Part shown: positions 47,129 through 63,074 of the stretch, one piece after another
How the letters are laid out: each line of letters opens with the position of its first letter
Position numbering within the stretch: the stretch's first letter is position 1
Source: Actinoplanes italicus
GTDB taxonomy: Bacteria; Actinomycetota; Actinomycetes; Mycobacteriales; Micromonosporaceae
Length of the DNA stretch: 64,000 nt
Assembly (NCBI RefSeq): GCF_003001815.1
Contig: NZ_PVMZ01000002.1
Coordinates: forward strand, 372,001-436,000
Direction: 5' to 3'
Notes under the pieces: generated by a model
The model's input: only the letters and a program-made list of their open reading frames with translations
Database searches by the model: none
What the model was told of the DNA's origin: nothing
Program-made: the position numbers and the translations under genes

Positions 47129-47202
47129 CGCGGGGTGGAGCAGCTCGGTAGCTCGCTGGGCTCATAACCCAGAGGTCGCAGGTTCAAATCCTGTCCCCGC
47201 TA
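47129..47202 (+). tRNA. Initiator tRNA-fMet (anticodon CAT), left copy
   Basis: 74 bases without encoded CCA. Anticodon CAT at 47163-47165, the three G-C pairs of the anticodon stem typical of initiators (GGG...CCC), T-loop GGTTCAAATCC. Acceptor stem starts CGCGGGG; the first base does not pair with base 72 (C opposite T), which marks initiators, though most have C opposite A. An identical copy lies inverted at 62980-63053. Confidence 0.93.
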
Positions 47203-47209
47203 CGAGTGC

Positions 47210-47250
47210 AGAGGGTCTATGTCCGCGGAGAACGCGGACGTAGGCCCTCT
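47210..47250 (+). terminator. Terminator after left tRNA-fMet
   Basis: AGAGGGTCTATGTCCGCG (47210-47227), loop GAGAA, then its near-complement (47233-47250), an 18-bp stem with two imperfect pairs. The same element follows the right tRNA copy. Confidence 0.7.
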
Positions 47251-47299
47251 TCGCATTTCTGCCGGGGGCCGAGCCTCCAGACCCCGCGTCACGGTGGTT

Positions 47300-47651
47300 G
47301 CGGTTCGCGGTTCCCTTCCGGTGGGTTGCGCTGGCTGGGGTTTGCGGTCCGCTTTTTGGTCGTTCGGTCGCGGTGTCGGCACTGGCCGCGGTTCGCGGTC
47401 CGCTCCTGGCTGGCTCGATCGCGGTGTCGGCACTGGCCGCGGTCCGCTTCCTGGTGGCTCGGTCGCGGTATCGGCGGTGCTTGCGCGGCTGGGGATCCAT
47501 GGTTCGGTCGCGGTGGTGGCCGTGGCTGGGCCAAACGCTCAGCGCGTGAGCCTTGAGTGCCTGAGCACCTGAGTGCCTGGAGCCCATGGGCTGAGGGCTT
47601 TGACATCCGAGGCCCGAGAAGCTGATCAATTCCTGGAGATCTTGGACACTT
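47300..47651. repeat. Non-coding GC-rich direct repeats
   Basis: No gene is supportable. Imperfect repeats of a CGGTGTCGGCACTGGCCGCG core, with spacers of about 50 bases, occupy 47365-47500. Another T/G-rich run lies just before. The last 100 bases look random up to the IS end at 47652. Confidence 0.5.
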
Positions 47652-48647: not shown

Positions 48648-48900
48648 GTCCGGCTGCATTCCTTGTCTCGGTTCTTACCAGATAGCCGGCCGCCTCGATC
48701 TCGCGTAGGGCTGACTGGATGGAGTCGCGCCCGCAGCCATTAGCTTTAGCTATCTGCTCGGTGCGGACTATCCAGTTGTCCGGCTTGCTCAGAATGTAGA
48801 TGAGAAACTCCGCGAGCTTTGAAACTCAAGCGGTGTCCTCTATCAGCGCATTGCTGATGATAAAGAAGTGCGCCTTCGGCCGTGGTGCCCTGTAAATCAT
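48648..48900 (-). pseudogene. Helix-turn-helix protein, frameshifted and cut by the IS
   Basis: ATG at 48900 begins MIYRAPRPKAHFFIISNALI and continues to a premature stop; after a frameshift (LSFKARG / AEFLIYILSKPDNWIV) the frame reads RTEQIAKANGCGRDSIQSAL and REIEAAGYLVRTETR, a winged helix. The frame ends exactly where the IS begins. Proteins of this type occur on integrative elements and plasmids of actinomycetes, suggesting a former mobile element. Lower GC than its surroundings. Confidence 0.65.
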
Positions 48901-49164
48901 TTCTGCCTCAAATCGCTGTGCTCATCCTCGCCGCCGATTTGAAGTGGGGAGCCGGGGTCTAATCCAGCTCCGCACCTTTAGACCGCACAGCGACGAGGAC
49001 CTGTTGAGTACTACGGTTTGAGTTCTTGCCGAACCTGCTCTTGCGCGGTTTCACGTGATCATGGATGAATCCGTCGTGCGCCGAGAAGTCGGTGGGGCTA
49101 CCTCTAACATGGCGGCGCGGCCGTCTCGTTGAAGGAGGTGCGCTGACTATCGTGATGACGGTGA

Positions 49165-49262
49165 GCAGCGACGCACTTGGTCGATCTGTTCGCGGGATGC
49201 GGCGGCATGGAGATCGCTTTCCTTGCGGGCCATCGCCAACACATGCGGGAGGACGAGATGCC
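49165..49262 (+). pseudogene. Possible C5-cytosine methyltransferase fragment
   Basis: A short frame reads LVDLFAGCGGMEIAFLAGH, matching motif I of C5 DNA methyltransferases (DLFAGCGG). Nothing before or after continues the enzyme. The match is short, so this is tentative. Confidence 0.4.
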
Positions 49263-49289
49263 CGACCGTCATGTTGGTGGTAGGCGTGC

Positions 49290-49445
49290 CAGATCCTCAA
49301 GCCCAATGGGGACGAGCCGGAGAAGGTGAGCCCGCTCGACAACGAAATCTCCAAGCGCACCGAGTTCGAGGACCACATCAAGCGCACCGTCTACGAGATC
49401 GAGCACGACAGGATCGCCCACGGCATCGTCAAGCAGGAGAAGTAG
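49290..49445 (+). pseudogene. Unrecognised gene fragment
   Basis: 51 codons ending in TAG: starts QILKPNGDEPEKVSPLDNEI and continues EFEDHIKRTVYEIEHDRIAHG. The composition is protein-like (charged, amphipathic) but no start codon or family is visible. It directly follows the methyltransferase-like fragment in a region of debris. Confidence 0.35.
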
Positions 49446-49498
49446 GGGCTCGACACCTTCGGTGTGGTCGTTATCCACCTCATCGCTGGAGAACCACC

Positions 49499-49731
49499 GT
49501 GCCAGGCGTTCTGATCAACGGGTTGCCCGAGATGAAGGCCTTCGACAACAAGGTCTCCAGGTCCGTCCTCAAGGCGGCTTCGTGGAGAAGGTGAACCTGC
49601 TCGACATCACCGAGGATGACTGCGTACTCGACGAGTTACACGAGGAGCACCCCAAGCGGGCCGTCTTCGACATCCAGTACGACAGGTTCACCAACGACTT
49701 CCTCAAGGTGTGGTTGAGGTTCAAGAACTAA
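49499..49731 (+). pseudogene. Unrecognised frameshifted gene
   Basis: GTG at 49499 with GGAG upstream gives PGVLINGLPEMKAFDNKVSR, then a stop; the neighbouring frame from about 49578 continues FVEKVNLLDITEDDCVLDEL and HPKRAVFDIQYDRFTNDFLK to TAA at 49731. One frameshift near 49575 separates them. No family recognised. Confidence 0.4.
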
Positions 49732-49820
49732 CACTGCTTCAGAACGGCCAGAACCCGAAGGACGTAGTCCGAGGCGTTCTGTGCCTTACTGGTTCTCGTA
49801 AGAGAACTACTTGTTATCTC

Positions 49821-50078
49821 AGTGAGGTGATCTCAGCGAGAGGAATGTGCCTGGCCTGATGAACACGGTCATATCCGGACAGGCTGGGCAGTACTGGATA
49901 TAGGCGTGGAGCCATCGATAGACATGTCCTTGCGACAGAAACAGGTCTTCGAGAGGGCTCCACGTGATCGGTTATCGAGCCATGCTCGACGTGCCCAGGA
50001 AACTCGTGCGTCACCTCGCACGGCTGCTGGCCGCGCAGCGCCGGTTACTCGGGACACGCCGCCGGACAAGGGCCTTGA
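49821..50078 (+). mobile_element. Truncated second IS copy, inverted
   Basis: 258 bases nearly identical to the right end of the IS at 47652-48647, in opposite orientation. It starts with the inverted repeat AGTGAGGTGATCTCAGCGA (49821-49839) and carries the transposase start (GTG 49964; IGYRAMLDVPRKLVRHLARL). Identity stops abruptly at 50078, where a diguanylate cyclase fragment begins. Confidence 0.85.
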
Positions 50079-50612
50079 TGATAACCGCGCCGGTCGAACT
50101 GGTGCACCCGGGCGGACTGCTGAACGTCGTCTTGTTGCCGTCCAACCTCATCGCGGGGGCTGCGGCCCTGCACCCCTCGATGCGGCAGCTCACAATCCCG
50201 TTGCCGCAGCCTCCGACGTTTGTTCGCCCTCGCCTGGCGCTTCTTTCCGCAGCGACCCTGCTCGTCCCGGCTCTGATCTTTTTCCAGGGCGCGGCGGGCC
50301 GTCCTGGGCGGGGCTGGCTCGCGATCGGGTTGGGCTCTGTTGTATTGATTCTGCTCGTTACCGTACGAATGGTCGGCCTGGTCGGGCGGATCGAAACCCA
50401 GGCAGGTCACCTGACAGCGATGGTGCGGCTTGATCCGCTCACCGGTCTGGCCGACCGCCGCAGTCTGGACGAACGGATGGCGGAGGCGATCACCCGCAGC
50501 CGGGCGACCGGAGAAGCCCTCTTCGCGGCGCTGATCGACCTGGACCACTTCAAGCGGTACAACGACACCTACGGCCACCAGGCGGGTGACGAGTTGCTGA
50601 CGGAGGCGGCGG
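50079..50612 (+). pseudogene. Diguanylate cyclase fragment
   Basis: The frame contains a membrane segment (WLAIGLGSVVLILLVTVRMV), a linker helix and the start of a GGDEF domain: RLDPLTGLADRRSLDERM and [21 protein letters not shown]. It breaks off before the GG(D/E)EF signature and becomes alaS DNA of the other strand near 50613-50620. Both ends are lost: the N-terminus joins the IS remnant. Confidence 0.8.
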
Positions 50613-50619
50613 GGGCCTC

Positions 50620-51427
50620 CTCTCGCGCATAGTCGCCGACCTCGACGACCCTCACCTGCTCGCCGTATTTCTCGCCGAAGAGCGCAATCGCGCCGAGCCG
50701 GCGCGCTTGCTGTGGGGAGGTGATGAACGCGTGTACCACAAGGCCTTGCAGGAGAATCTCGTTAACCTGGTGGATCAGGTGGGTCGCCGTGTGCGAACGT
50801 GAGATTGCCCGCCGCCGGGTCACATCGATCTCGGCGAAACCGGCCTCACCCGCGCGTACCTCGCCGCGCAGCACCCGCGCCTTGGTGCACGATCAGGCCC
50901 GGGATCGGCTGCTGCACGTCCACGGCCTTGAGCTCGGCGCCGCCGACCCGGATCACGCCGGTGTCGGACTGCTGGCCGCCGCCCTCCGCGTAGAACGGGG
51001 TGGTGTCGAGCACCAGCTCGACGTAGTCACCCTCACCGGCCACCTCGACGCCGCCGCTGGCGATGAGCGCGCGGACCCTGGACTCGCGGGAGACCTCCTG
51101 GTAGCCCGTGAACTCGACCGGGCCTCCAGCGTCCAGCGCCGTACGGTACGCGGACAGGTCGGCGTGACCCGCTTTACGTGCGTTGGCGTCGGCCTTCGCG
51201 CGGGTCCGCTGCTCGGCCATCAGCCGCCGGAACCCGCCCTGGTCGATCTGAAGGCCCGCTCCTGCGCGATCTCCAGGGTCAGGTCGATCGGGAAGCCGTA
51301 CGTGTCGTGCAGCTGGAACGCCTGGCTGCCCGACAGCTGCCTGCCGCCGACCGACTTGGCCTTGGTGATCGCGGTGTCGAGGATGGTCGTGCCTGCCTTG
51401 AGCGTGGCGAGGAATACGTTGTTGCCA
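50620..51427 (-). pseudogene. alaS: Alanyl-tRNA synthetase internal fragment
   Basis: Three frames together spell the middle of Ala[38 protein letters not shown]; then [33 protein letters not shown]; then [17 protein letters not shown] joined, after loss of about 45 codons, to [20 protein letters not shown] and [10 protein letters not shown]. The catalytic N-terminus and the ELCGGTH region are absent. It is a non-functional piece; the working alaS must be elsewhere. Confidence 0.88.
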
Positions 51428-51430
51428 TAG

Positions 51431-51502
51431 ATCACCCAGATCTACGAGGGCCCCAACCAGGTCCAGCGGATCGTGATAGCGCGCCAGCTCCTGAAGGGCT
51501 GA
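51431..51502 (+). pseudogene. Acyl-CoA dehydrogenase C-terminal fragment
   Basis: 24 codons ([20 protein letters not shown] then LKG and stop) match the conserved C-terminal end of acyl-CoA dehydrogenases (YEGTNQIQR). The rest of the gene is missing; alaS debris joins it directly on the left. The next intact gene starts 113 bases later. Confidence 0.7.
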
Positions 51503-51615
51503 AAGTCGCTGTTCTAGCAGCTCAGATGGTGCCGTCAACTCGCCGCCCGCCCTTGGCGATCTCCTGTCCGTCAGAGATGACTGAACGGTGACGCACGGCG
51601 GACCAGGGAGCCCGG

Positions 51616-52494
51616 ATGGACGTAGTCGACGCGAAGCAGCTCGAAGACCGGCTGAACAAGCGGGACTACTTCCCCGACGAAGGTCTGGTGGCGGCGGCCG
51701 TCCTGGCGCAGCGCCTGCGGAAGCCGGTGTTCCTGGAGGGCGAGCCGGGCGTCGGCAAGTCGACGTTCGCCGAGGCGATGGCCGGCGTCCTGGACCCGGA
51801 CGCCGTCCTGATCCGGCTGCAGTGTCACAGCGGGCTCGACGCCGGTCAGGCCCTCTACGACTGGGACTTTCCCCGCCAGGTGCTCACGCTGCGCGCCGCC
51901 GACCGGGGCGACGCGGTGCCGGTCACCGACCTGTACCGCCCGGAATTCCTGGTGCGGCGACCGGTGCTGGCCGCCTTCGAGAAGCCGTCGGTACTGCTCA
52001 TCGACGAGATCGACCGCGCCGACGACGAGTTCGAGGCCTGCCTGCTGGAGGTGCTGGACAAGGGCACCATCTCCATCCCGGAGCTGGGTCCGGAGCAGTC
52101 CGGCATCACGATGCGGATGCCGTTCATCGTGCTGACCTCCAACGACACCCGGGAGGTGCACGGGGCGCTGAAACGGCGCTGCATTTACCACTGGATCGAG
52201 CACCCGAAACCGCCCCGGGAGGCGGAGATCCTCGAGCACAAGATCGACGGCCTGACCGTTGAGCTGGCCGCGGAGATCGCCGAGGCCATGAAACGGCTGA
52301 GGGCCGACGGCGTGCTGACCCGGCCGCCGGGTGTCGCGGAGGCGATCGACCTGGCCCGTTCGGTGGTCGCCAGCGGCGCGAAGACGCTGGCCGAGGATGC
52401 GGCGATCTCCTGCGCCGGCGCGGTTGCCAAGCACCGCGACGACGTCGATACGGTCCGGCGGGTGCTCGGCGAAGTCGGACGGGACTCTGCGTGA
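51616..52494 (+). CDS. MoxR-family AAA+ ATPase
   Basis: 292 residues, ATG at 51616 with CAGGGAG upstream. Walker [11 protein letters not shown] (about residues 41-50), Walker [17 protein letters not shown] (near 128-134), sensor [13 protein letters not shown] and an arginine-finger region [10 protein letters not shown]. MoxR ATPases act as chaperones on VWA partners. The stop overlaps the VWA gene start (GTGA), and a CHAT protease follows, an arrangement known from MoxR-VWA conflict systems. First gene of the seven-gene operon. Confidence 0.92.
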
Positions 52495-53585
52495 TCACGG
52501 CCGAGCGGGCACTGGCCGGCGGGCTGACCGCGTTCGCCGAACGGCTGCGGGCGGCGGGCATGGTCGTGGAGTTCTCCCGGCTGCAGGCGGCGGCCGAGGC
52601 GCTGATCTCGGCGTCGTTGCTGGAGCTGCCCGGCCCGTACTGGCCGCTGCGTCTGACGCTGTGCGGGCGGCGGTCCGACCTGGCCGTGTTCGACATGGTG
52701 TACCGCGACTGGACCGCCCCGCCCGAGCAGCCCGGCGACGAGCCGCTCGTCGAGGTGATCATGCCCGCCGGCACGGTCGCCGCCACCGAGGCCGGCGCGG
52801 CGCAGACGATCACGGGAACGTCCGGCTCGTCCTACAGCGCCGAACTCGCCGCCCGCGACATGCGCACCCTCAGCGATACGGAGAAGCAGCAGGTGGCGGC
52901 GCTCGTCACCCGGCTCCGGCCGGTCGGCCGGCCCCGGCGGGTGGCGCGGCGGGTCAGCGACGGGTCGGGACGCGTCGACGTGCCCCGGTCGGTCCGGCCG
53001 ATGCTGCGCAACGGCGGGGAACCGACCCGGCTGCGGTGGTGCCGGCGCGACGTACGGCCGCGCCGCCTGCTGTTCCTGATCGACGTCAGCAAGTCCATGA
53101 CGCCGTACGTCGACATGTATTTGCTGTTCGCGCACGCGGCGCTGGTCGCCGGGCCGGGCATCACCGAGGTGTTCACGGTCGGCACCTGCGCCACCCAGAT
53201 CACCGCTCAACTGGCGGCGCCCGATCCGCAGGAGGCGATGAGTCGAGCCACCGAGGTCGAGGCCGACTGGCAGCAGGGCACACGGCTGGGCCATTCGTTG
53301 CGGTCGTTCCTGCGCCGCTGGTCGGGTAACCGCCTGCTGCGCTCCTCGGTCGTCGTGATCTGCAGCGACGGCATGGAGGAGGATCGCGACCCCGGTCTGC
53401 TGCCGCGCCAGGTCGCGCGGCTCTCCCGGATCGCCCACCGGGTCATCTGGGTCAACCCGGCCAGCCGCCGCAAGAACTTCCGGCCGATGCTGCCATTGCG
53501 CGACAGTCTGCGCTACGCCGACCGGGAACTCATCGGTCACACCCTGAACGAGGTGCACGCTTTGGTGGAGGCGATCAAAGGATGA
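52491..53585 (+). CDS. VWA domain protein (CoxE-like), MoxR partner
   Basis: 364 residues, GTG at 52491. The C-terminal half is a VWA domain with MIDAS residues in LFLIDVSKSMTPYVD (DxSxS near 197), TRLGHSLRSFLRRW (Thr) and VVICSDGMEED (Asp). The N-terminal half is helical (ALAGGLTAFAERLRAAGM). It binds metal-dependent partners and is remodelled by MoxR. Couples by ATGA overlap to the CHAT gene, suggesting that it passes a signal to that protease. Confidence 0.88.
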   Translation: MITAERALAGGLTAFAERLRAAGMVVEFSRLQAAAEALISASLLELPGPYWPLRLTLCGRRSDLAVFDMVYRDWTAPPEQPGDEPLVEVIMPAGTVAATEAGAAQTITGTSGSSYSAELAARDMRTLSDTEKQQVAALVTRLRPVGRPRRVARRVSDGSGRVDVPRSVRPMLRNGGEPTRLRWCRRDVRPRRLLFLIDVSKSMTPYVDMYLLFAHAALVAGPGITEVFTVGTCATQITAQLAAPDPQEAMSRATEVEADWQQGTRLGHSLRSFLRRWSGNRLLRSSVVVICSDGMEEDRDPGLLPRQVARLSRIAHRVIWVNPASRRKNFRPMLPLRDSLRYADRELIGHTLNEVHALVEAIKG

Positions 53586-56029
53586 ACGAGCCGGGCTACG
53601 TGACCCCCGAGGTCCATCGGGTGATCGCCCGCGACGACCTGCTGATGCTGGCCGCGGAGACCGACGAGGTGGTCGGCATCGTCGGCAACCAGGTGTCGCT
53701 GGCCAAGCTCAAGAAGGACGACGAGAGCCTGTTCGAGGTCGCTCTCGCCCACTACCTCAAGACCGCCCGCGAGGGCCGCCAGGCGTCGGTGCGCACCAAC
53801 GCCTGGGACAGCGCCGCGGTGATCGTCCGGTTCGGCGACCTGGTCGGGCTCCGGCCGGCCAGCGCGGGCTCCCCGGAGGAGATGCACGAGAACGCCCTGG
53901 CCGAGAATGTGTCGCGCAAGGCCGGATCCCGGCTTGACCGGGCCCTCGCCACCGGGGTGATCAACCGTTACCACGCCGCCCGCAACCTGCGGCTGATCGG
54001 CAAGTTCGAGCGGGCGTTGCCGCTGGTCGCGCGGCCCCTGGCCGACCTGATGGGTACCGGCGCCGAGCCGTACATGGCGCACTACCTGTTCGAGCGGGGC
54101 GCCGGCCTGCTGGCGCAGGGCCAGGCGGGGCAGGTCGACGACGCGCTCGGCGAGTGGGACGAGTACTGGGAGAAGACGCGCGCCCAGGGCTACTCGACCC
54201 GGTACCGGTTCGAGTTCCTGCGGGCGCTGGCCTATTGGGACAGTGACGAGCGCAGCCCGCAGGAGGCGCTCGCCCAGCTCGACTCGTCCCTGGGCCGGCT
54301 CCTCGGCGGCGTGCCGGTGCCGGTGCCGATGGCCGACGGCACGTTCCGTCAGTCGGACGACGACCGGGGCGTCCGGGAGATCTCGGTGACCCTGGCCAAG
54401 GCCGAGTTGCTGACCGCCTGCGCCACCTCCGACGGCGAACGGGCCGAGGCGGCCGCCCTCGGCCGGCGGGCGCTGGAGATCGCGAACCGGGTCCGCGGGC
54501 GGATGCGGGTGATCTCCCGGTCCCGGTCACCGCTGGCCGAGGCCTTCCGGCGGCTGTACGGCGACATCGCGCTGCTGGCCGCCCGGCTGGCCGACGCCGG
54601 GACGCCGGGCGCGGCCGAACTCGGCCTGGAGGTGGCGCTGACCGCGAAGCAGACCGGCTTCGCCACCCGGATCCGTGCCGACCGCGGCCTGATGAACGCC
54701 AACCTGCAGGGCATCCTCGACCGGATCGTGGAGTTGGAGAACAAGCCGGAGAACGACCTGTTGTTCGCCGACGATCCCGACGCGCGCGACCGCATGCTCG
54801 GCGAGCTGCACTTCCAGCTCGGCGACAAAATCTCCGCGATGCTGGCCGAGACCGTTCTGCCCTCCCGGGTCGACCTGGGTCGGGTGACAACCGCGCTGGG
54901 CGGGCGGACGGCGCTGGATTACCTCGAACTGCCGGGCTCGGTCGGCGGGCCGCCGTCGCTGTACCGCTCGCTGCTGCGACCGGGACAGCCGATCCTGTTC
55001 GAGCGCTTCGAGCCGGACGCCGGGGTGGTGGCGTTCTTCCAGGACCGGCGGGCGACCCGGGACCTGTTCGACTGGGTCGGCCGCTTCGGCCCGGCGCCCG
55101 GCAGCGATCCGGCCACGCCGGGCGGCAACCGTGAGGTGGTTCCGCGGAACGCGCGGTCGGTGCCGACCGTCCTGCCGACCTGGGCGGAGATCGCCGGCGT
55201 GCTGCCGAAGGCGCTGCGGGCGGACCTGGCCGGCTCGCCGGACGACCCGATGCCGCTGGTGATCTCGGCCCACTCCTGGCTGAGCCTGGTGCCCTGGGTC
55301 GCGCTGCCGATCGGCGAGGCCGGGACGCGCCTGGTCGAGCGGGCGGTGGTCACCCAGACACCGGTGCTGACCTGTCTGACCGCGCTGGAGGTGCCCACGG
55401 CCGACGGACCGGCCCTGGTCCGGCTCGTCGGCGCGAACAAGGCCGGCCGGGGCGTCAACGTCTCCCGGGAACGCGAGGCCTGGCTGCTTCCGGCGGGAAC
55501 CGATGAGGTGCGGCTCAGCCGGGCGGTGGTCCGTTCGGACCAGGTTCCCGAGCTCTGCCCCGAGCTCCAACTCGGTGACGTACTCACCAGGGATGCCTCC
55601 TGGTCGTTCCTGCACGTCGCGGCGCACGGCGGCCTCGGACCGGAAGAGGAGGCGCAGGGCTCCCACGACGGGCTGCGGCAGGTTCTGGAGATCCCGGAGC
55701 AGCGGCTGACCGCCGCCCGGGCGCTCGGCCTGCACTGGCCGGGATCGGTGCTGATGGCCTCCTGCCATGTCGGGCAGGTGGTCAACACGCGTGACGCCGA
55801 GCCGCTGAACTTCGTGATGGCCCTGCTCACCGGCGGCGCGCGGTGCGTCGTGGCGGGCATCGCGGGCATCGGCGACGAGGGGACCGGCAACGTCGCCCAC
55901 GACATCGTGCGGGCGCTTCGGGGCGGGCCGGGCAGCCTCGACCGGGCGCTGCGCTCGGCCCAGCTCGAGGCGATCAAGCGCGACGCCGCGCCGGCCGGCT
56001 GGGCGCTGCTCGCGGCGTACGTCAAATGA
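53582..56029 (+). CDS. CHAT-domain protease with N-terminal helical repeats
   Basis: 815 residues. Residues 1-420 are helical, including TPR-like stretches (ERALPLVARPLADLM, QVDDALGEWDEYWEK, ALAYWDSDERSPQEALAQL). The C-terminal CHAT domain has its catalytic pair: His in SFLHVAAHGGLG (near 681) and Cys in SVLMASCHVGQVVN (near 728), then NFVMALLTGGARCVVAGI. CHAT proteases (separase/caspase-like) are activated by partner proteins in defence and cut gasdermins or other proteases in known cases. Overlaps the VWA gene by four bases, so part of the sensor module. Confidence 0.88.
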   Translation: MNEPGYVTPEVHRVIARDDLLMLAAETDEVVGIVGNQVSLAKLKKDDESLFEVALAHYLKTAREGRQASVRTNAWDSAAVIVRFGDLVGLRPASAGSPEEMHENALAENVSRKAGSRLDRALATGVINRYHAARNLRLIGKFERALPLVARPLADLMGTGAEPYMAHYLFERGAGLLAQGQAGQVDDALGEWDEYWEKTRAQGYSTRYRFEFLRALAYWDSDERSPQEALAQLDSSLGRLLGGVPVPVPMADGTFRQSDDDRGVREISVTLAKAELLTACATSDGERAEAAALGRRALEIANRVRGRMRVISRSRSPLAEAFRRLYGDIALLAARLADAGTPGAAELGLEVALTAKQTGFATRIRADRGLMNANLQGILDRIVELENKPENDLLFADDPDARDRMLGELHFQLGDKISAMLAETVLPSRVDLGRVTTALGGRTALDYLELPGSVGGPPSLYRSLLRPGQPILFERFEPDAGVVAFFQDRRATRDLFDWVGRFGPAPGSDPATPGGNREVVPRNARSVPTVLPTWAEIAGVLPKALRADLAGSPDDPMPLVISAHSWLSLVPWVALPIGEAGTRLVERAVVTQTPVLTCLTALEVPTADGPALVRLVGANKAGRGVNVSREREAWLLPAGTDEVRLSRAVVRSDQVPELCPELQLGDVLTRDASWSFLHVAAHGGLGPEEEAQGSHDGLRQVLEIPEQRLTAARALGLHWPGSVLMASCHVGQVVNTRDAEPLNFVMALLTGGARCVVAGIAGIGDEGTGNVAHDIVRALRGGPGSLDRALRSAQLEAIKRDAAPAGWALLAAYVK

Positions 56030-56093
56030 CGCGGTGCCGAAGATCCGGCTGTCCGTCAGATAGCAGCGACCGACGAGCAGCGGGAGGCGACCC

Positions 56094-57458
56094 ATGGGAC
56101 TGACCACTGAGGAGATCGAAAAGCTGGCGCAGGGGGTCCGGCACCGGAGCCAGCCCATCGACGACGAGCTGACGCGCACCGTCGAGCGGGAGGTCGAGCG
56201 GTACCGCGACGTCCTGGAACAGCACCCGAGCCAGCGTCCACCGGCCGAGCTGGCGGGGCCGCAGCGGGCGATCGGCTGGCTGATCTACGAGGCGTCCATG
56301 GGGCTGCTGTGGAACATCGCGCCAGCGTTCGAGTCTCTCGAAGGGGCGAAGGGCGAGCAGTCGCGGGCCGACGCCGCCCTGGTCGTCCGGCTGGCCGACG
56401 CGGCCCGTGAGCTGCCGTGGCCGGAGTACGCGCCGCGCGCGCTGGGTGCGATCCGGGCGCACGCGCTGGTGGAGTCCAAACGCGACACCGAGCTCGGCTT
56501 CGACGCGGCCTACATCTGCCACAAGGAGGCCCGCGACCTGCAGCAGGTTTACCTCGACAGCCACGGCACGGACCCCGACCGCGAGCAGTTCGTCCTCGAC
56601 CTGGACGAGGTCATGCTGCAGCTCGCGCTGGCTGAGACCGGCACCGCCTGCCGCACCGCCGAACGCGTCCTGGGACTGTGGGCCGAGGAGCTGGAGAAGG
56701 ACGAGCCGACCTGGACCGCCGACGAGAGCGGCATCTGGACCCAGCGGATGTTCCGCCAGCTCTACGACGGTGTCGCGGTCGGCGAGCACGCCCTGCGGGT
56801 GGCCGAGAAGATCGAGGGGGAGCACGGCTTCACGTTCGAGGTGGACGCGGAGCGGCTCGCGATGCCGACCGCGTACCGCAATCCGGCCATCATGACCTGC
56901 CGCGCGTTGCTGCTGGTCTACTCAATGTCCCCGGAGATGGAGCAGCTCGGCAACGACCCGATCGACGCCAAGAACTGGACCAAGTTCCGCGATCGGCTGA
57001 TCGAGCGGTTCGACTGGGCCTTCGAGCACCTGTGCCGGCCGGTGAAGCGGGCCGACGGCACCGAGTGGACCATGCTGTTCGACCACCTTCGCTCGATGGT
57101 GCAGCTCTGCCTGCACCTCGGGCTGCTGATTCCCGAGCATGCGCTGGCGCAGGACCTCGTCGTCGACGACACCCTGACCCTGCGCTGCCTGAACGACGAG
57201 GCCGTCGAACAGATCTCGAAATGGCTGGCCACGAGGGTGAGCGACGAGAAGGGCGGCGAGAAGCAGCGCGGCGACGCCAACATCATCGGCACCGCCTCGA
57301 AGCCGAGCTTCATCACCTCCGTCGAGGCCTGCCGCACTGACACCGGGCCCGCGGCCGAGTACCGGGAATGGCGACGGCGCTGGTTCGAGCTGGACCGGTA
57401 CGCCGAGTTCACTGGCCGCCGCGAGCGCATCTTCCGGATCCTCGACGCGCGGGACTGA
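56094..57458 (+). CDS. Unknown all-helical protein in defence operon
   Basis: 454 residues, ATG at 56094 with GGGAGG upstream. Mostly amphipathic helices (EEIEKLAQGVRHRSQPIDD, LALAETGTACRTAERVLGLW, EYREWRRRWFELDRYAEF) with no catalytic motif, signal or membrane segment. The pattern is compatible with TPR-like or VMAP-like adaptor folds. It lies between the CHAT and caspase genes, so it is a good candidate for a sensor or scaffold. No family recognised by eye. Confidence 0.65.
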   Translation: MGLTTEEIEKLAQGVRHRSQPIDDELTRTVEREVERYRDVLEQHPSQRPPAELAGPQRAIGWLIYEASMGLLWNIAPAFESLEGAKGEQSRADAALVVRLADAARELPWPEYAPRALGAIRAHALVESKRDTELGFDAAYICHKEARDLQQVYLDSHGTDPDREQFVLDLDEVMLQLALAETGTACRTAERVLGLWAEELEKDEPTWTADESGIWTQRMFRQLYDGVAVGEHALRVAEKIEGEHGFTFEVDAERLAMPTAYRNPAIMTCRALLLVYSMSPEMEQLGNDPIDAKNWTKFRDRLIERFDWAFEHLCRPVKRADGTEWTMLFDHLRSMVQLCLHLGLLIPEHALAQDLVVDDTLTLRCLNDEAVEQISKWLATRVSDEKGGEKQRGDANIIGTASKPSFITSVEACRTDTGPAAEYREWRRRWFELDRYAEFTGRRERIFRILDARD

Positions 57459-57474
57459 CGGAGGACGCGGCACC

Positions 57475-59304
57475 ATGGGAGACATCTACGCGCTTCTGGT
57501 CGGTATCAACCAGTACCAGGATCCGAGACTCAATAACCTGGCCGGCTGCGTGAACGACGTCCGTGACGCGGTCGCGTTCCTGAAACAGCACCGGAGGCCG
57601 GACACCGGCCTGGACGTCAACGAACTGCTCGACGACGAGGCCACCGGTGAGGCGATCGTCAGCGGCATCCGACAGCACCTCGGGCAGGCCGGCCCCGGCG
57701 ACGTCGCGTTGTTCTGGTTCAGCGGCCACGGGGCGACCGAGCCCGTCGGTGACTTCTGGTATCTGGAGTCGAACGGCGAGGAACTCCAGACGCTGGTCTG
57801 CGCCGACAGCCGTGTCGCCGGCCGCCCCGACCTGCTCGACAAGGAACTCGCGGTGCTGCTGGGCGGAGTGGCCGAACGCGGCTGTCACGTCGTGGCGATC
57901 CTCGACAGCTGCCACTCCGGCGGCGCCACCCGCGACGGCGTCACCTACCGCGCCGCCGATCAGGCCACGGAAAAGCCGTCCTACCGGCTCCTGCCGGACC
58001 TCGCCGGACATTATGCCGACGGCCCGCCGCCGGTCCGGCACGTGCTGATGGCTGCCTGCCGCCCGGAGGAGAAGGCGGGCGAGGCGTTGGCCGAGGGCGA
58101 TGTCCGCGGCCGGTTCAGCCATGCCCTGCTGCAGGTCATGGCGGCCGCGCCGGCCGGCACGACGTACCGCGACCTGGTGTTGCTCGCCCGCAACCAGGTC
58201 GAGCAGCGCACCGCCACCCAGCGGCCGATCGTCTTCCCGGAGGGGCGAGGACTCGCTGACGCGCCGCTGTTCGGCGGCGGCGCGATCGTCGACCCGCCCA
58301 CGTTCACCATGCGGCACGGGAAGCGGGGCTGGCAGGGCAACGCGGGCGCGGCACACGGGATCGCGGCCGGACGGACGCGGTTCGCCGTCGAGGGCGCCCG
58401 TCCCGCCCTCGAGGTGGACGTGACCGCCGTCGAGACCGGGTTCAGCCTGGTCGCACCGCTCGACTGGGAGCCCGACAAGACGACCGTGTACCGGCTCGTG
58501 CTCGCCTGTCCGCCGCACCCGGTTCTGTTCGGCATCCATGCGGCCGATACGGGCGCGCTGCGGGCGGCGTTCGCGGACGACGACCCGTACGTCCGGCTGG
58601 TCGGCGTCGAGGACGCGGAACTGATCCTCGAACCGCGCCCGGACGGCGTCCGGCTTCTCGACCGCGGGAACGAGCGGATCGCCAGCTTGGACAGCCTGCA
58701 CGGCGTCGAGCACCTGCACCACATCGCCCGGTGGTGGCGGGTCCTGACGCTGCACAACGACGACTCGGCGATCGCGTACGGCGTCCTGCTGGAGATCGTC
58801 GTTCCCCGGCCCGGCGAGGACAGGCTGTCCCCCCAGGCGGTCGCGACACCGCCCGACGGCGACGGTGTCCTGCGGCTGTCCTATGCGGACGACGGCACGC
58901 CGCCCGGCTGCTTCCTGCGCCTGCGCAACACGACCGGCCGGCCGTTGCACTGCGTGCTGCTCGACCTGACCGAACGCTTCGGGATCGACGACGTCTACCT
59001 CCCCGACGGCCTCGTCCGGGCGGGCGCGACGGTGGCCGTCTCCGAGGGAGAGGTCATCGACGTCCTGGTGCCCGAAGGGTGGCCGACCGAGTACCACGAC
59101 TGGCTCGTGCTGATCGTGTCGACTGACGAGATCGACGCCTCCCCCTATCGACTGGCCCGCTTCGATCCGTCCCGCTTCGAACCGTCCCGCGACGTGCACC
59201 CCCGTCGCCGGCGGCGCGGAGATTCCGTGCCGGTCGAGGGCGACTGGTGGACCTGCGTGCTTCCCGTTGTCACCACCGGCCCCCGACAAGGAGAAACCCG
59301 TTGA
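57475..59304 (+). CDS. Caspase-like protease (peptidase C14), first
   Basis: 609 residues, ATG at 57475 with GGAGG upstream. N-terminal caspase domain: YALLVGINQYQDPRLNNLAGC, catalytic His in LFWFSGHGATEP (residue 85), catalytic Cys in VAILDSCHSGGATRD (residue 146), and HVLMAACRPEEKA. The C-terminal 300 residues are beta-rich (LRNTTGRPLHCVLLDLTERF, VLVPEGWPTEYHDWLVLIVS), a form seen in bacterial conflict proteases. Its stop overlaps the gasdermin start by one base, which indicates that gasdermin is its substrate. Confidence 0.92.
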   Translation: MGDIYALLVGINQYQDPRLNNLAGCVNDVRDAVAFLKQHRRPDTGLDVNELLDDEATGEAIVSGIRQHLGQAGPGDVALFWFSGHGATEPVGDFWYLESNGEELQTLVCADSRVAGRPDLLDKELAVLLGGVAERGCHVVAILDSCHSGGATRDGVTYRAADQATEKPSYRLLPDLAGHYADGPPPVRHVLMAACRPEEKAGEALAEGDVRGRFSHALLQVMAAAPAGTTYRDLVLLARNQVEQRTATQRPIVFPEGRGLADAPLFGGGAIVDPPTFTMRHGKRGWQGNAGAAHGIAAGRTRFAVEGARPALEVDVTAVETGFSLVAPLDWEPDKTTVYRLVLACPPHPVLFGIHAADTGALRAAFADDDPYVRLVGVEDAELILEPRPDGVRLLDRGNERIASLDSLHGVEHLHHIARWWRVLTLHNDDSAIAYGVLLEIVVPRPGEDRLSPQAVATPPDGDGVLRLSYADDGTPPGCFLRLRNTTGRPLHCVLLDLTERFGIDDVYLPDGLVRAGATVAVSEGEVIDVLVPEGWPTEYHDWLVLIVSTDEIDASPYRLARFDPSRFEPSRDVHPRRRRRGDSVPVEGDWWTCVLPVVTTGPRQGETR

Positions 59305-60077
59305 TGCTGTCGAAAGCGGCCACCCGCCTGCTGCGCGTCGAGGACCGTGACTACGTCCCGCTGGCGCTGCCCACGACCGACCTGCGGCTCTTCGACGTGC
59401 TCGCCCGGGCGGGCCGGGTCCTGCGCCGTTACAGCCGGCTCGACGAGGTCCTCACGGTCGAGCCGGCCACGCCGCCGGTGAGCGTCACCGACGACGAGCC
59501 CGTGGTCGCCACCAGCGGCTCCGGCCAGGGAACGGCGAAGCTCGGCATCGGGCTCGCCGCGGTGTCGGCCGTCCTGGAGGCGTTCGGCGGCAAGGGTGAT
59601 TTCACGATCAAGACCGAAAAGGCCAACCGCATCCGGTACGCCTATACGGACGTGACCGCCGACCGCGTCGACCTGGTCTCGCTCGACGCCTGGCTGAACC
59701 ACGCCGACATGCGGACCGACGTGCGTCGTGTCGCCGACCTGCTCGCCGCGCAGCGCCTTTACGTCGTGGTGGCGACCCTCAAGGCCCGCAGCCTCAAGGT
59801 CAGCTTTCTCGACGAGAACTCGGCCGCCGCCGAGATCGACGTGGCGGCCGTGCAGGACATCGCCGGCGGGAACATCACCGTCTCCGGTGACCGCAAGCGC
59901 ACCTCGGAGCTGGTCTTCACCGGCGCCCGGCCATTGACGGTGGCGGCGAAGGCGGCGCAGCTGAGCATCGACGACCACGGCATCTGGGTCAACGAGCGCT
60001 ATGGGGGGTTCGGCGAGATCCGGGGGCTCGGCGACGGTCGCGTCTTCTTCGAGCACGACGTGCTCCACCTGGCCTGA
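59304..60077 (+). CDS. Bacterial gasdermin pore-forming protein
   Basis: 257 residues, ATG at 59304 with AAGGAG nine bases upstream. It matches the bacterial gasdermin pattern along its length: DYVPLALPTTDLRLFDVLAR; GTAKLGIGLAAVSAVLEAFG; NRIRYAYTDVTADRVDLVSL; LYVVVATLKARSLKVSF; AAAEIDVAAVQDIAGGNITV; LVFTGARPLTVAAKAAQLSI. The last 30 residues after DDHGIWV are the likely inhibitory tail removed by protease. Released bacterial gasdermins form membrane pores that kill the cell. It contains no Cys, so the N-terminal palmitoylation reported for some family members cannot occur. Between two caspase-like genes. Confidence 0.82.
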   Translation: MLSKAATRLLRVEDRDYVPLALPTTDLRLFDVLARAGRVLRRYSRLDEVLTVEPATPPVSVTDDEPVVATSGSGQGTAKLGIGLAAVSAVLEAFGGKGDFTIKTEKANRIRYAYTDVTADRVDLVSLDAWLNHADMRTDVRRVADLLAAQRLYVVVATLKARSLKVSFLDENSAAAEIDVAAVQDIAGGNITVSGDRKRTSELVFTGARPLTVAAKAAQLSIDDHGIWVNERYGGFGEIRGLGDGRVFFEHDVLHLA

Positions 60078-60079
60078 CC

Positions 60080-61987
60080 GTGGCCCATCACGCGCTCGTC
60101 GTCGGGTGTGACGCGTACCCGTCGATGTCGAATGCCGACCTGGCCGGCGCGGTCGGTGACGCGCTCGCGGTCCAGGACTGGCTGGTCGGTCCCGGCGGCG
60201 TTCCGGCCGGTAACGTCGTCCTGCTCGCCTCGCCGGCGGCTCACAGCGCGAGCGTTGCGGCGGGTACGCGGGTGACCGGCGAGGCGAGCAGGCTGGCCTT
60301 CGCGCGCGAGGTTGGCCGGCTGGCCGGGCTGACCGACGTGGGCCACGCCGACCGGTTGTACGTGTACTTCGCCGGCCACGGCTGCGGCACCGACCCCGTC
60401 AACGCCGCTCTCTCCGACGACGCGCTGGTGTTCTCTGGCTTCTCCGAGGACGACCCGAGCGCCCACGCGATCGCGCTGCGGGACCTGCTGGCCCAGCTCG
60501 ACCAGGCCCGTTTCGGCGAGGTCGTCATGTTTCTCGACGCCTGCCGGGACTTCCCGTACGGGCGGCCGTTCCGGCCCGGGGGCCTCCGCTTCGACTCGGC
60601 CGCCGGTCGCGGCGTCCCGCCCCGGCTCTACCGGCTGCAGTCGACGCTGCCGGGACGCCGGACCTACGGCGGCGCGTTCACAGCGGCGCTCCTGGCCGGC
60701 CTGGCCGGTGCTGGCGCGGCGAAGGAGTTCGACGAACGCGCCGACCGGCCTTACGTGGTGCGGTGGTCGACGCTGACCGCGTACCTGGAGTCTGAGATGC
60801 GGAACCAGGAGCCGTTCGTCAGCGGCCGCGGTGACCTGGTCCTCGCCGACTTCGCGGACGGGACCTTCGGCGAGGTGGAGCTGACCGTCTCGGTCGCTCC
60901 CGTCGCCGGTGACTCCGGGGACGGCTTGGAGATGGCGGTGACCTACCGCGATCCGTCGTCCTTCGAGGAGCCGCGGCTCAAGCGGCCCGGCCCGGCTCCC
61001 GCGCGGTTCCGTGTCCCGCCGCGACGTCACCGGGTGACCGCGCGAACACCCTCGACGTGGGGGCACAGCGCGGTCGATGCGTACGCCGACACAGCGGTGG
61101 CCGTCACCCTGAGCCGAACGCTTCCGGACGTCGTTTCCGGTGATCGTGACCCGGGATCGGCCCCGGCCGTGATCACGACCGACGACCCGGCGGCCGCGAT
61201 CATGGTGACCACGCCCGGCGGAGGCACGCTGATGCGCGGCGCGGGATCGGTCGCCGGCACCCTGGCCGACGGCCTTTACACCGTGACTGTCACCGATGCC
61301 CTGGGCTGGCGCCATCGCGAAGTGCTCGACGTTCACGAGGGGTCCGGCGGGGAGGTGACGCTCGACCTGCCGAATCCGCCGGGCGGCGCCGAACGCGACG
61401 GACCGCTGCGCTGGGTCGGACCCGCGGCGGCATTCGTCTCGAGCACACCGCTGTTCGCCCGGCCGACGGAGCCCGGCCGGCCCGGCCGGTTCGTCTGCGT
61501 GGCGACGGACCGGTTCCGGGCCACGGGCCGCACGGCCGGCGGGGCGCTCACCGAACTCCGGGTCGAGTCGGTGGCCGACCGGTGGTGGTGGGTGGCCGCT
61601 CCGCCCGAGGCGCAGTGGTTGGAAGTCCGGTTCGGCGATCACCGCCTCGAACTTCCGGCCGCTCCGGGCCTGCGCGCGACGATCGAACTGGCGGCCACCG
61701 GGCTGCTGGTCATGTACTTCGACCGGGCCCACCTAGAGGATCAGGCGTCGCTGGTCTTCGTCGAGCGGGCGCAGCGCCTGATGAGCGCCGGCCGCCTCGA
61801 CGCGGCCGACGTCGTCCTGGGCGCGGACCGGCGGCGGACCGCCCTCGACGGTGTCCTGCTCGGGGCGCACACCCCGTTGCGGCGGCTCGGCCGGACGGCG
61901 GTCGCGCCCGGGAACCGGCCCTACCTGCTGCCGGGCAACCAGTGGGGCGTCCTGCTGGACCGTCCACCGCACCCGGACGACCGGTAG
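60080..61987 (+). CDS. Caspase-like protease (peptidase C14), second
   Basis: 635 residues from GTG at 60080, two bases after the gasdermin stop. Caspase domain: HHALVVGCDAYPSMSNADLAG, catalytic His in LYVYFAGHGCG (residue 100), catalytic Cys in VVMFLDACRDFPYG (residue 155). The C-terminal region has Ig-like or beta-sandwich stretches (GGGTLMRGAGSVAGTLADGL, YTVTVTDALGW) and a terminal helical part. It is only distantly similar to the first caspase, so the two may act at different steps, for example sensor-activated and executioner protease. Last gene of the operon. Confidence 0.9.
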   Translation: MAHHALVVGCDAYPSMSNADLAGAVGDALAVQDWLVGPGGVPAGNVVLLASPAAHSASVAAGTRVTGEASRLAFAREVGRLAGLTDVGHADRLYVYFAGHGCGTDPVNAALSDDALVFSGFSEDDPSAHAIALRDLLAQLDQARFGEVVMFLDACRDFPYGRPFRPGGLRFDSAAGRGVPPRLYRLQSTLPGRRTYGGAFTAALLAGLAGAGAAKEFDERADRPYVVRWSTLTAYLESEMRNQEPFVSGRGDLVLADFADGTFGEVELTVSVAPVAGDSGDGLEMAVTYRDPSSFEEPRLKRPGPAPARFRVPPRRHRVTARTPSTWGHSAVDAYADTAVAVTLSRTLPDVVSGDRDPGSAPAVITTDDPAAAIMVTTPGGGTLMRGAGSVAGTLADGLYTVTVTDALGWRHREVLDVHEGSGGEVTLDLPNPPGGAERDGPLRWVGPAAAFVSSTPLFARPTEPGRPGRFVCVATDRFRATGRTAGGALTELRVESVADRWWWVAAPPEAQWLEVRFGDHRLELPAAPGLRATIELAATGLLVMYFDRAHLEDQASLVFVERAQRLMSAGRLDAADVVLGADRRRTALDGVLLGAHTPLRRLGRTAVAPGNRPYLLPGNQWGVLLDRPPHPDDR

Positions 61988-62472
61988 CGGCAGCCGTTAC
62001 TTGGCTGCCTGCGGAGGGCCTTGAGCTGGGTGTGAGCGTCTTTGGCGGCGTCCCGGACCGTCTTGACCTCGGCGCGGATGGCGTCGCCGTCCGGGCCAGG
62101 CGTGAAGCCGAGCAGGGTATCGACCTTGCCGTTGAGCCCGGCAGCGACCGCGTCGAGCTTCGCGTCGTCGATGTTCTTGTTGTCGTGCAGCTTGGTCACG
62201 GCGGCCAGTTCGGTGTCGATGGCGGCGGTGAGGCGCATCTTGGGACCGGTGAGGATGAAGACGCGGTAGTCGACGATCATCTTCTTGGCGTCGTCCTTGA
62301 GGGCGGCGACCGTGGTCTCGGTTCCGACCTTGGTCTTGAGCGCGGTGAGGCCGTCGGTCTGCGACGTGATCCGCAACTCGCGGATCGCGCCTGTCAACCA
62401 CGCATCGCGCGCCCGCGTGAGAGCGGTGAGCCGGTCTGGCCCTCCGAGGTAGCTACGGATGGAGCCGGTCAT
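61988..62472 (-). pseudogene. Helical hypothetical protein, probably truncated
   Basis: A frame from ATG 62472 (TGSIRSYLGGPDRLTALTRA) gives long helices (LKTKVGTETTVAALKDDAKK, VTKLHDNKNIDDAKLDAVAA) resembling coiled-coil actinobacterial secreted proteins, but without the signal peptide expected. Its frame runs on into the 3' end of the caspase gene; a neighbouring frame ends at 61997 with QAAK, more like a natural end. A frameshift and a lost N-terminus are likely. Confidence 0.5.
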
Positions 62473-62884
62473 CGCGGGTCCGTCGCGGCGGCCTGCTGAC
62501 CGGCCTGATAGCCAGCCGCTTGGCGCCGACTCCAGTTGGCACTTTCCGTGGCACTCCGTTCGCTGCGTGGTGACCTGCGCCCGTATGCGCGTCGTAGGTC
62601 ACCACGCAACAGGGAGCGGCGGGCGTGCCTGCATCACCGGGTGGCGCTGTGGCCAACGCCTGGCATGCGAGGACGATTGAGGGCCAGCGCTGGGTACGTT
62701 CCGGTAATGCCCCGAAGCCGCGTCACTGCAGTGAAGGGAACGGAGCCGCCAAGTCTGCTGTCGCCACCGTGGAAACGCGATCCGTGACCGCCGTCACTGC
62801 AGTGATGGAAACGCGGGTCGCAACGCCGTAGTGACCGTGACCGTGATCGCGAACCGTCACCACCGGGAGCGGAACGCGAATCGC
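62473..62884. other. Non-coding stretch with two copies of a 12-bp palindrome
   Basis: About 410 bases without a supportable gene. TCACTGCAGTGA, a perfect palindrome, occurs at 62723-62734 and 62794-62805, in otherwise low-complexity sequence with repeats of GAAACGCG and GTGACCGT. Confidence 0.5.
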
Positions 62885-63074
62885 CACCACCGTGACGCGG
62901 GGTCCGGGGGCTCGGCCCCCGGGAAATGCGAAGAGGGCCTAGGTCCGCGTTCTCCGCGGACATAGACCCTCTGCACTCGTAGCGGGGACAGGATTTGAAC
63001 CTGCGACCTCTGGGTTATGAGCCCAGCGAGCTACCGAGCTGCTCCACCCCGCGTCGGTAGGTAAACCCTAGCGC
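62885..63074 (-). repeat. Right arm of inverted tRNA-locus duplication
   Basis: Reverse complement of 47108-47299, including the tRNA gene and its terminator (62932-62972). Identity ends on the outer side near 63074 and on the inner side near 62885. Confidence 0.88.
62980..63053 (-). tRNA. Initiator tRNA-fMet (anticodon CAT), right copy
   Basis: 74 bases identical to the left copy at 47129-47202, inverted. Same unpaired first acceptor base, same three G-C pairs in the anticodon stem. Its terminator is at 62932-62972. Confidence 0.93.

What the first reader, a model, noticed from the sequence alone, without database searches (positions are those of the whole stretch)
51616..61987. Seven-gene suicide operon: MoxR-VWA-CHAT-unknown-caspase-gasdermin-caspase
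Three unrelated types of protein are coupled in one operon: an ATPase/VWA sensing pair, three proteases of the CHAT/caspase clan, and a bacterial gasdermin. Gasdermin-protease pairs and MoxR-VWA conflict systems are each known, but I do not know of this combination. The natural reading is a cascade: MoxR and VWA license CHAT; CHAT activates a caspase; the caspase cuts the gasdermin; pores kill the infected cell. Gene overlaps (GTGA, ATGA, one base, two bases) show a single functional unit.
Basis: partly seen in the sequence, partly recalled or inferred. Interest (0 to 1): 0.93.

Follow-up and report, generated by a model that had tools for sequence, protein, structure and literature searches.

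The report
Gasdermin plugged into actinobacterial suicide switch
An actinobacterium carries a seven-gene operon that joins a bacterial gasdermin (a protein family that punches holes in membranes) and its likely cutting enzyme to a separate, recurring four-gene control block, suggesting that bacteria may swap different membrane-attacking 'executioners' onto one shared self-destruct switch.

Summary
Seven + strand genes at 51616-61987 encode MoxR ATPase, VWA, CHAT protease, a family without a Pfam model ("P4"), caspase 1, a genuine bacterial gasdermin and caspase 2; the motifs checked are intact.

The seven-gene set was not found elsewhere in what I could search. The operon looks like two modules joined. 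(A) MoxR-VWA-CHAT-P4 is a recurring core: 13 of 23 P4 loci have all four, 22 have CHAT. Partners in the 22 other loci: CATRA proteins with predicted membrane segments (9), LCAT-like hydrolases (3), another hydrolase (1), caspases (5), none recognised (4). (B) Gasdermin plus caspase 2 occurs without the core in two family genomes; caspase 2 groups with those gasdermin-linked caspases, caspase 1 with core-linked ones.

The operon lies in debris-rich cargo between inverted, identical tRNA-Met genes; the closest relative fetched has one tRNA and no cargo.

Best reading: a swappable death switch whose executioner here is gasdermin, most likely cut by caspase 2. Known kinds, joined in a way I did not find in print.

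The parts
51616..52494 (+). MoxR-type AAA ATPase (P0001, 292 aa): switch ATPase of the core
   Evidence: Pfam AAA_5 2.8e-12; NCBIfam MadB 202 bits, below its cut-off of 475; P-loop G42 and P44-K48 and D130/E131 invariant in 13 of 13 aligned, window included
52491..53585 (+). VWA protein, CoxE-like (P0002, 364 aa), 4-base overlap with MoxR
   Evidence: Pfam VWA_CoxE 1e-41; D198, S200, S202, T264, D293 invariant in 13 of 13 aligned, window included
53582..56029 (+). CHAT protease with a ~540-aa N-terminal region (P0003, 815 aa), 4-base overlap with VWA
   Evidence: Pfam CHAT 2.4e-18 at 544-810; PADLOC 'chat' 3e-87; H682 and C728 invariant in 10 of 10 aligned, window included; that these are the catalytic pair is recalled
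56094..57458 (+). P4, family without a Pfam model (P0004, 454 aa); proposed coupling or adaptor protein
   Evidence: No Pfam, PADLOC or NCBIfam match; in 18 members only scattered single-member Pfam matches of E 0.05 or worse; no PDB profile match; homologues in 15 of 300 family genomes, host included, and by a CHAT protein in 22 of 23 loci, window included
57475..59304 (+). Caspase 1 (P0005, 609 aa), core-type caspase, His and Cys motifs present
   Evidence: Peptidase_C14 1.2e-17; on the core-linked side of the caspase tree; motifs GHG and DSC
59304..60077 (+). Bacterial gasdermin (P0011, 257 aa), no cysteine anywhere; short C-terminal tail after Arg240 (candidate cut, inferred)
   Evidence: NF051890 166.5 bits; PADLOC bGSDM; profile match to PDB bGSDM 8sl0/7n51 1e-37; R240 invariant in 3 of 3 aligned; no Cys
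60080..61987 (+). Caspase 2 (P0007, 635 aa), gasdermin-type caspase, likely cognate protease of the gasdermin
   Evidence: Peptidase_C14 7.4e-7; 36% identity over nearly the full length to the caspase next to the gasdermin in L008; groups with gasdermin-linked caspases 100/99
47129..47203 (+). tRNA-Met, left edge of the variable segment holding the operon
   Evidence: ARAGORN; identical 75 bases to the right copy
62979..63053 (-). tRNA-Met, right edge, inverted copy
   Evidence: ARAGORN; inverted repeat of 180 nt, 94%

Best explanation
The operon is a composite self-destruct (abortive-infection type) module made of two independently occurring parts. Part A, MoxR-VWA-CHAT-P4 with a core-type caspase, is a recurring actinobacterial control block that is linked in different genomes to different effector candidates, several of them predicted to act on membranes (CATRA proteins with C-terminal hydrophobic segments, LCAT-like hydrolases). 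Part B is a gasdermin and its own caspase. Here part B lies in one apparent transcription unit with part A, so that gasdermin is the executioner of the switch. Likely working order, inferred: an unknown trigger is sensed by the MoxR/VWA/CHAT/P4 assembly; ATP-driven remodelling releases the CHAT and caspase 1 proteases; these activate caspase 2; caspase 2 removes the short C-terminal tail of the gasdermin; pores form and the cell dies. Shown: gene content, recurrence of A and B apart, the caspase grouping, motifs, location in a variable site. Inferred: transcript, trigger, order, cut site, death, defence role.
For: Gasdermin identity. Core recurrence: MoxR+VWA+CHAT+P4 in 13 of 23 P4 loci, CHAT in 22 of 23; the MoxR, VWA, CHAT, P4 and CATRA models matched none of 234 control proteins. 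Effector exchange over the 23 loci: CATRA 9, LCAT-like 3 (one fused to P4), caspase 6 (window included, one fused with P4), DUF900 hydrolase 1, gasdermin 1; CATRA proteins have 3-5 hydrophobic segments in 9 of 9. Gasdermin-caspase 2 pair without the core in L007 and L008. Caspase 2 with gasdermin-linked caspases, caspase 1 with core-linked ones, split 100/99. Motifs present. Variable site, without cargo in a relative.
Against: The full seven-gene set was found nowhere else, so it may be a recent or non-functional juxtaposition. MoxR and VWA are not both found in 10 of 23 P4 loci, so they may not be essential to every version (two of these, L042 and L055, are cut by contig ends). Four loci show no recognised effector. 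The gasdermin has no cysteine, whereas the majority of bacterial gasdermins are reported to be palmitoylated at an N-terminal cysteine (PMC9612521, passages seen). P4 has no predicted structure or known relative. The P4 loci were found by searching for P4, and the models used to label them were built from some of the same loci. The core-caspase model also matched the gasdermin-linked caspase of L007 weakly (7.5e-7), caspase 1 sits on a long branch whose place within its side is open, and the hydropathy rule also flags one segment in some soluble proteins. No result here concerns expression, cleavage, pores or phage.
Confidence: 0.62

Rival explanations
1. Two independent neighbours: a complete core conflict system and a free-standing gasdermin-caspase 2 pair were brought together by insertion and share transcription only; the core does not control the gasdermin.
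For: Gasdermin-caspase 2 occurs without the core in L007 and L008, and 22 other P4 loci have no gasdermin. The site is a debris-rich variable segment.
Against: The gasdermin start overlaps the caspase-1 stop by one base and all seven genes lie on one strand without large gaps, unlike the other 22 P4 loci, in none of which P4 directly follows CHAT on the same strand. A CHAT gene of another architecture overlaps the gasdermin start in L008.
Confidence: 0.2
2. The first reader's linear cascade, conserved as a seven-gene unit: MoxR/VWA license CHAT, CHAT activates caspase 1, a caspase cuts the gasdermin.
For: Seven genes with the motifs present on one strand.
Against: The set did not recur; the two caspases fall on different sides of the tree; most P4 loci lack a separate caspase gene (5 of 23 have one, window included).
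Confidence: 0.1
3. A developmental or stress-triggered lysis programme of a multicellular actinobacterium rather than phage defence.
For: Conflict systems of this style are reported as mainly present in multicellular prokaryotes (PMC7159879, abstract start and passages); the host belongs to the family of Micromonospora, Plantactinospora and Dactylosporangium by contig identity with named records. No defence assay exists here.
Against: Patchy distribution (gasdermin in 2 of 67 genus genomes, host included), location in a variable site and exchange of effector candidates fit conflict systems better than development.
Confidence: 0.08

Closest known systems
Bacterial gasdermin-protease systems (Johnson et al. 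2022, paper not held; review PMC9612521, passages seen)
   Same: Gasdermin of 257 aa with a short tail and an adjacent caspase; CHAT and caspase genes beside gasdermins are already noted there; PADLOC's chat, caspase and bGSDM models match four of the seven genes.
   Different: Two caspases plus CHAT, and a MoxR-VWA-P4 block upstream; the passages seen do not mention MoxR or VWA, and the word ATPase has no occurrence in that text. No cysteine in this gasdermin.
MoxR-vWA ternary conflict systems, VMAP class (Kaur et al. 2020, PMC7159879, passages seen)
   Same: MoxR ATPase plus vWA as the switch, peptidases and effectors attached; effectors vary among loci.
   Different: No VMAP-C match in the seven proteins; 'gasdermin' and 'CHAT' have no occurrence in the text held. 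A locus with a VMAP-C protein and a C-terminal P4 domain lies elsewhere in the same genome (L032).
CATRA conflict systems (Burroughs and Aravind 2020, not held; mentioned in a passage of PMC8195603; Pfam CATRA-N/C, CATASP)
   Same: Nine of 23 P4 loci, with the same CHAT protein family, carry CATRA genes (Pfam-checked in L035 only; others by model).
   Different: No CATRA or CATASP match in the window genes scanned; gasdermin in the effector place.
MADS, methylation-associated defence (full name recalled; MadB/MadC models from NCBIfam)
   Same: MoxR and VWA proteins are distant relatives of MadB and MadC.
   Different: Both far below the curated cut-offs (202 of 475 and 51 of 600 bits); the only other Mad signal is a weak PADLOC mad8 match of the ATPase (E 0.0094).

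Membership tests
Bacterial gasdermin (bGSDM) | Match to the curated gasdermin model above cut-off | tested here: met
   NF051890 166.5 bits, cut-off 100
Bacterial gasdermin (bGSDM) | Sequence relation to solved bacterial gasdermins | tested here: met
   Profile of three gasdermins, window's first: 8sl0 1.1e-37, 7n51 1.4e-37
Bacterial gasdermin (bGSDM) | Protease gene next to the gasdermin | tested here: met
   Caspases on both sides
Bacterial gasdermin (bGSDM) | N-terminal cysteine for palmitoylation (majority, not all) | tested here: not met
   No cysteine in the 257 aa; P0014 has none either, P0012 and P0013 have an early one
Bacterial gasdermin (bGSDM) | Cleavage-activated pore formation | not testable with these tools
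   Needs protein work
MoxR-vWA VMAP ternary system | MoxR ATPase and vWA protein in tandem | tested here: met
MoxR-vWA VMAP ternary system | Third component with VMAP-C domain | tested here: not met
   No VMAP-C match in the seven proteins at E up to 1 (the list for the ATPase stops at 25 families); the model matches L032 at 1.6e-37
CATRA conflict system | CATRA-N/C protein and CATASP | tested here: not met
   No match among window genes scanned with models built from relatives; present in nine other P4 loci
CATRA conflict system | CHAT/caspase-clan protein with repeat-rich N-terminus | tested here: inconclusive
   CHAT met; TPR_12 only weakly in 3 of 10 members, best E 0.1, TPR_2 in 1
EACC1-associated caspase system | Caspase above the NF047832 cut-off | tested here: not met
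   51.8 and 31.7 bits, cut-off 140
EACC1-associated caspase system | EACC1 membrane protein gene | not tested
   No model for it was searched by name
MADS (MadB/MadC) | MadB and MadC models above cut-off | tested here: not met
   202 of 475 and 51 of 600 bits

The most novel reading that the evidence does not exclude
MoxR-VWA-CHAT-P4 is a general, effector-agnostic death switch of Actinomycetota. P4 is its socket: it is fused to or packed with whichever effector the locus uses (LCAT-like hydrolase, caspase, CATRA membrane protein), and in this genome the socket has accepted a whole gasdermin-plus-caspase cartridge, so that four P4 loci in one cell each fire a different effector.
Probability: 0.35. 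Interest if true: 0.82.

Novelty: new variant of a known kind. Interest (0 to 1): 0.68.

Why it matters
The cues that activate bacterial gasdermins are called a major open question (PMC9612521, passage). A gasdermin wired to a MoxR-VWA-CHAT control block would give that question a defined upstream machine to test, and P4 gives a marker for finding sister systems with other executioners. It would also show how suicide systems diversify by exchanging effector cartridges, here perhaps by acquisition at a tRNA-bounded hotspot.

Tried and rejected
Rejected: that the sixth gene is a chance ORF (three model matches). Not supported: that P4 is a divergent VMAP (no such match) or a copy of the CHAT N-terminus (hhalign probability 6.5%, E 0.0056, over 66 columns). 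Rejected: that P4 in L042/L050 has a real N-terminal extension; the extra ~310 residues look to me like a non-coding frame taken by my gene caller.

Led nowhere: P4 in viral contigs, gasdermin and P4 in plasmids, promoter and terminator scans (0 promoter-like against 0.1 expected, 2 terminator-like against 2.4), and P4 against the PDB. AlphaFold predictions for P4 and CHAT could not be run, so the P4 fold is open. Johnson 2022, Wein 2025 and Burroughs and Aravind 2020 are not held, so a mention of MoxR-VWA there cannot be excluded. PADLOC's 'chat' model scores P0003 (292 bits) and the CHAT gene beside the gasdermin of L008 (270 bits) far above the core CHAT of L047 (41 bits) and finds none in L054; this hints that gasdermin-linked CHATs of this genus were already in its training set.

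The partial P4 match in G031 (48 residues) was not fetched. A second P4 in L036 (9928-11289) is seen by tblastn but not by my gene caller. Only 4-5 candidates per genome were scored, so those counts are lower bounds. The gasdermin tallies overlap in genomes and must not be added.
Full report
Observation. A codon-usage caller, trained on the window and related loci, selects the same seven. The proteins are a MoxR-type AAA ATPase, a CoxE-like VWA protein, a CHAT protease, a protein without any family model (P4), two Peptidase_C14 caspases and a gasdermin. The gasdermin has no Pfam match above cut-off but passes the NCBIfam gasdermin cut-off (166.5 bits over 100), and a three-sequence profile that includes it finds solved bacterial gasdermins at 1e-37. 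Junctions: 4-base overlaps MoxR/VWA and VWA/CHAT, gaps of 64 and 16 bases around P4, one shared base caspase 1/gasdermin, a 2-base gap before caspase 2.

Integrity. P-loop (G42, P44-K48) and D130/E131 of MoxR and five metal-site residues of VWA are invariant in 13 of 13 aligned sequences, window included. The CHAT His and Cys are invariant in 10 of 10. Both window caspases keep the His and Cys motifs, as do the caspases of L007, L008, L031, L038, L039 and L042 in the alignment. So the refuter 'protease motifs mutated in related copies' is not met for these; the one caspase domain that has lost its His is in the P4 fusion protein of L032.

Gasdermin distribution. The gasdermin model was sought in genomes around the host: 2 of 60 relatives, 3 of 300 in the family, 1 of 394 in the class, 2 of 67 in the genus, 1 of 396 in the phylum, each count including the host; the sets overlap. 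The host has a single match. In 20-kb stretches around the three other gasdermins no MoxR, VWA, P4 or core CHAT was found. L008, same genus, has a CHAT-WD40 gene overlapping the gasdermin, then a caspase 2. L007 has, of the families modelled, gasdermin and caspase 2 only. L006 has an nSTAND1 NTPase gene next to the gasdermin that overlaps a CHAT-SIR2 gene, with an alpha/beta hydrolase beyond; neither of my caspase models matched there.

Core distribution. P4 homologues occur in 15 of 300 family genomes, one of them a fragment, with five copies at four loci in the host; in 9 loci of the named genome collection, found by short exact patterns (Plantactinospora, Micromonospora, Dactylosporangium, Nocardia altamirensis, a Pseudonocardiales MAG); and in 6 of 397 order genomes. 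After removing duplicates I mapped 23 loci including the window. CHAT of the same family lies by P4 in 22 of 23. MoxR, VWA, CHAT and P4 are all present in 13 of 23; of the ten others, L042 and L055 are cut by contig ends. None of the 22 others has a gasdermin match. As a control, 234 proteins from ten non-P4 loci, the three other gasdermin loci and the window up to 51000 gave no match to the MoxR, VWA, CHAT, P4 or CATRA models; besides the expected gasdermin and caspase 2 matches there were one weak LCAT match (5e-7) and one weak cross-match of the core-caspase model to the L007 caspase (7.5e-7).

What the core is linked to. Across the 23 loci: CATRA protein in 9 (Pfam-checked in L035: CATRA-N 2.6e-23, CATRA-C 8.3e-23, with CATASP; five of the nine were seeds of my model), each with 3-5 hydrophobic segments near the C-terminus by a hydropathy rule that also flags one segment in a few soluble proteins, window CHAT and caspase 1 among them. 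LCAT-like hydrolase in 3: immediately before P4 in L049 and L071 and fused to P4 in L055. Caspase in 6, window included: five as separate genes and one (L032) in a 1593-aa protein that ends in P4 beside a MoxR and a trypsin-VMAP-C protein. A DUF900 hydrolase diverges from CHAT in L033. Four loci (L036, L040, L054, L070) show none of these. Gasdermin: the window alone. The host's own four P4 loci carry four different sets: gasdermin with two caspases, caspase, a fused caspase domain without its His, and DUF900 hydrolase.

Which caspase belongs to what. In a tree of nine caspase domains, caspase 2 falls with the gasdermin-linked caspases of L007 and L008, and caspase 1 on the other side with the core-linked ones; the split has support 100/99, but caspase 1's branch is long and its place within that side is open. 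Caspase 2 is 36% identical to the L008 caspase over nearly its whole length; BLAST finds almost no similarity between the two window caspases (24 residues, E 0.85). Hence caspase 2 is the likely cognate protease of the gasdermin and caspase 1 part of the core, by inference from linkage.

Site. The operon lies between two identical, inverted tRNA-Met genes, with a transposase relic, a truncated GGDEF gene and alanyl-tRNA synthetase fragments on its left. Ten relatives were fetched at the neighbouring UPF0182 gene; two of the stretches are short (4.7 and 9.3 kb). None of the seven genes matched in them. In the closest (G014, 82% identity in the anchor gene) a single tRNA-Met is followed directly by the right-flank gene. 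Inverted tRNA-Met pairs enclose about 0.7, 2.3 and 3.8 kb in G002, G010 and G011. Four others (G001, G004, G005, G009) have a second tRNA-Met in direct orientation 0.5-11 kb away, and the two short stretches show one. So the place is variable, and the operon is probably acquired cargo.

Mechanism. Shown: parts, linkage, motifs, grouping, variable site. Inferred: the core senses and sets a threshold as proposed for MoxR-vWA systems in general (PMC7159879, passages; another paper proposes the vWA protein as the sensor in some systems, PMC10907252, passages); its CHAT and caspase 1 then act on caspase 2 or on a P4-held complex; caspase 2 removes the gasdermin tail. Reported bacterial gasdermins are cut after Leu or Arg about 20 residues from the end (PMC9612521, passages); Arg240 of the window gasdermin, 17 residues from the end and invariant in three aligned homologues, is a candidate. 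The absence of any cysteine means that the palmitoylation reported for most bacterial gasdermins cannot occur at a cysteine of this one.

Novelty. CHAT and caspase genes near gasdermins are known, and PADLOC models match four of the seven genes. MoxR-vWA systems and CATRA systems are known. Library searches for bacterial gasdermin with CHAT and MoxR, gasdermin with CATRA, and gasdermin with vWA and actinobacteria gave one paper (gasdermin only as a cited title), one paper (both terms in one figure legend) and none; key papers are not held. I therefore call it a new variant of a known kind, with P4 and the exchange of effectors as the part that deserves follow-up.

Noticed in passing
L032 9106-16563: Second system in the host genome: trypsin-VMAP-C protein, MoxR and a 1593-aa protein with a caspase domain that lost its His and a C-terminal P4 domain; P4 therefore also occurs in a locus with a VMAP-C protein.
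   Followed up: partly
L055 2292-5168; L049 5403-8161; L071 9123-11602: LCAT-like alpha/beta hydrolase fused to or immediately before P4, suggesting lipid hydrolysis as an alternative executioner.
   Followed up: partly
L031 8557-11344; L036 8464-11289; L038 and L039; L070 8689-11335: P4 genes sometimes come as a divergent pair or as two copies flanking a caspase; the meaning is unknown.
   Followed up: no
P4 loci, c1 family (e.g. L044 15191-17166): A ~330-aa protein family without a Pfam match in the four members tested, often as a tandem pair, lies near the core in many P4 loci; no match in the window.
   Followed up: no
window 47129-63053: Inverted identical tRNA-Met pair bounding cargo; the spacing and orientation of tRNA-Met copies at this place vary among the ten relatives fetched.
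   Followed up: partly
window 47837-51538: Transposase relic, 259-nt inverted repeat at 99% (48390-48648 and 49820-50078), truncated GGDEF gene and alanyl-tRNA synthetase fragments: gene debris left of the operon.
   Followed up: partly
L006 9854-16057: Another gasdermin operon type: alpha/beta hydrolase, CHAT-SIR2, nSTAND1 NTPase, gasdermin, without a match to my two caspase models.
   Followed up: partly
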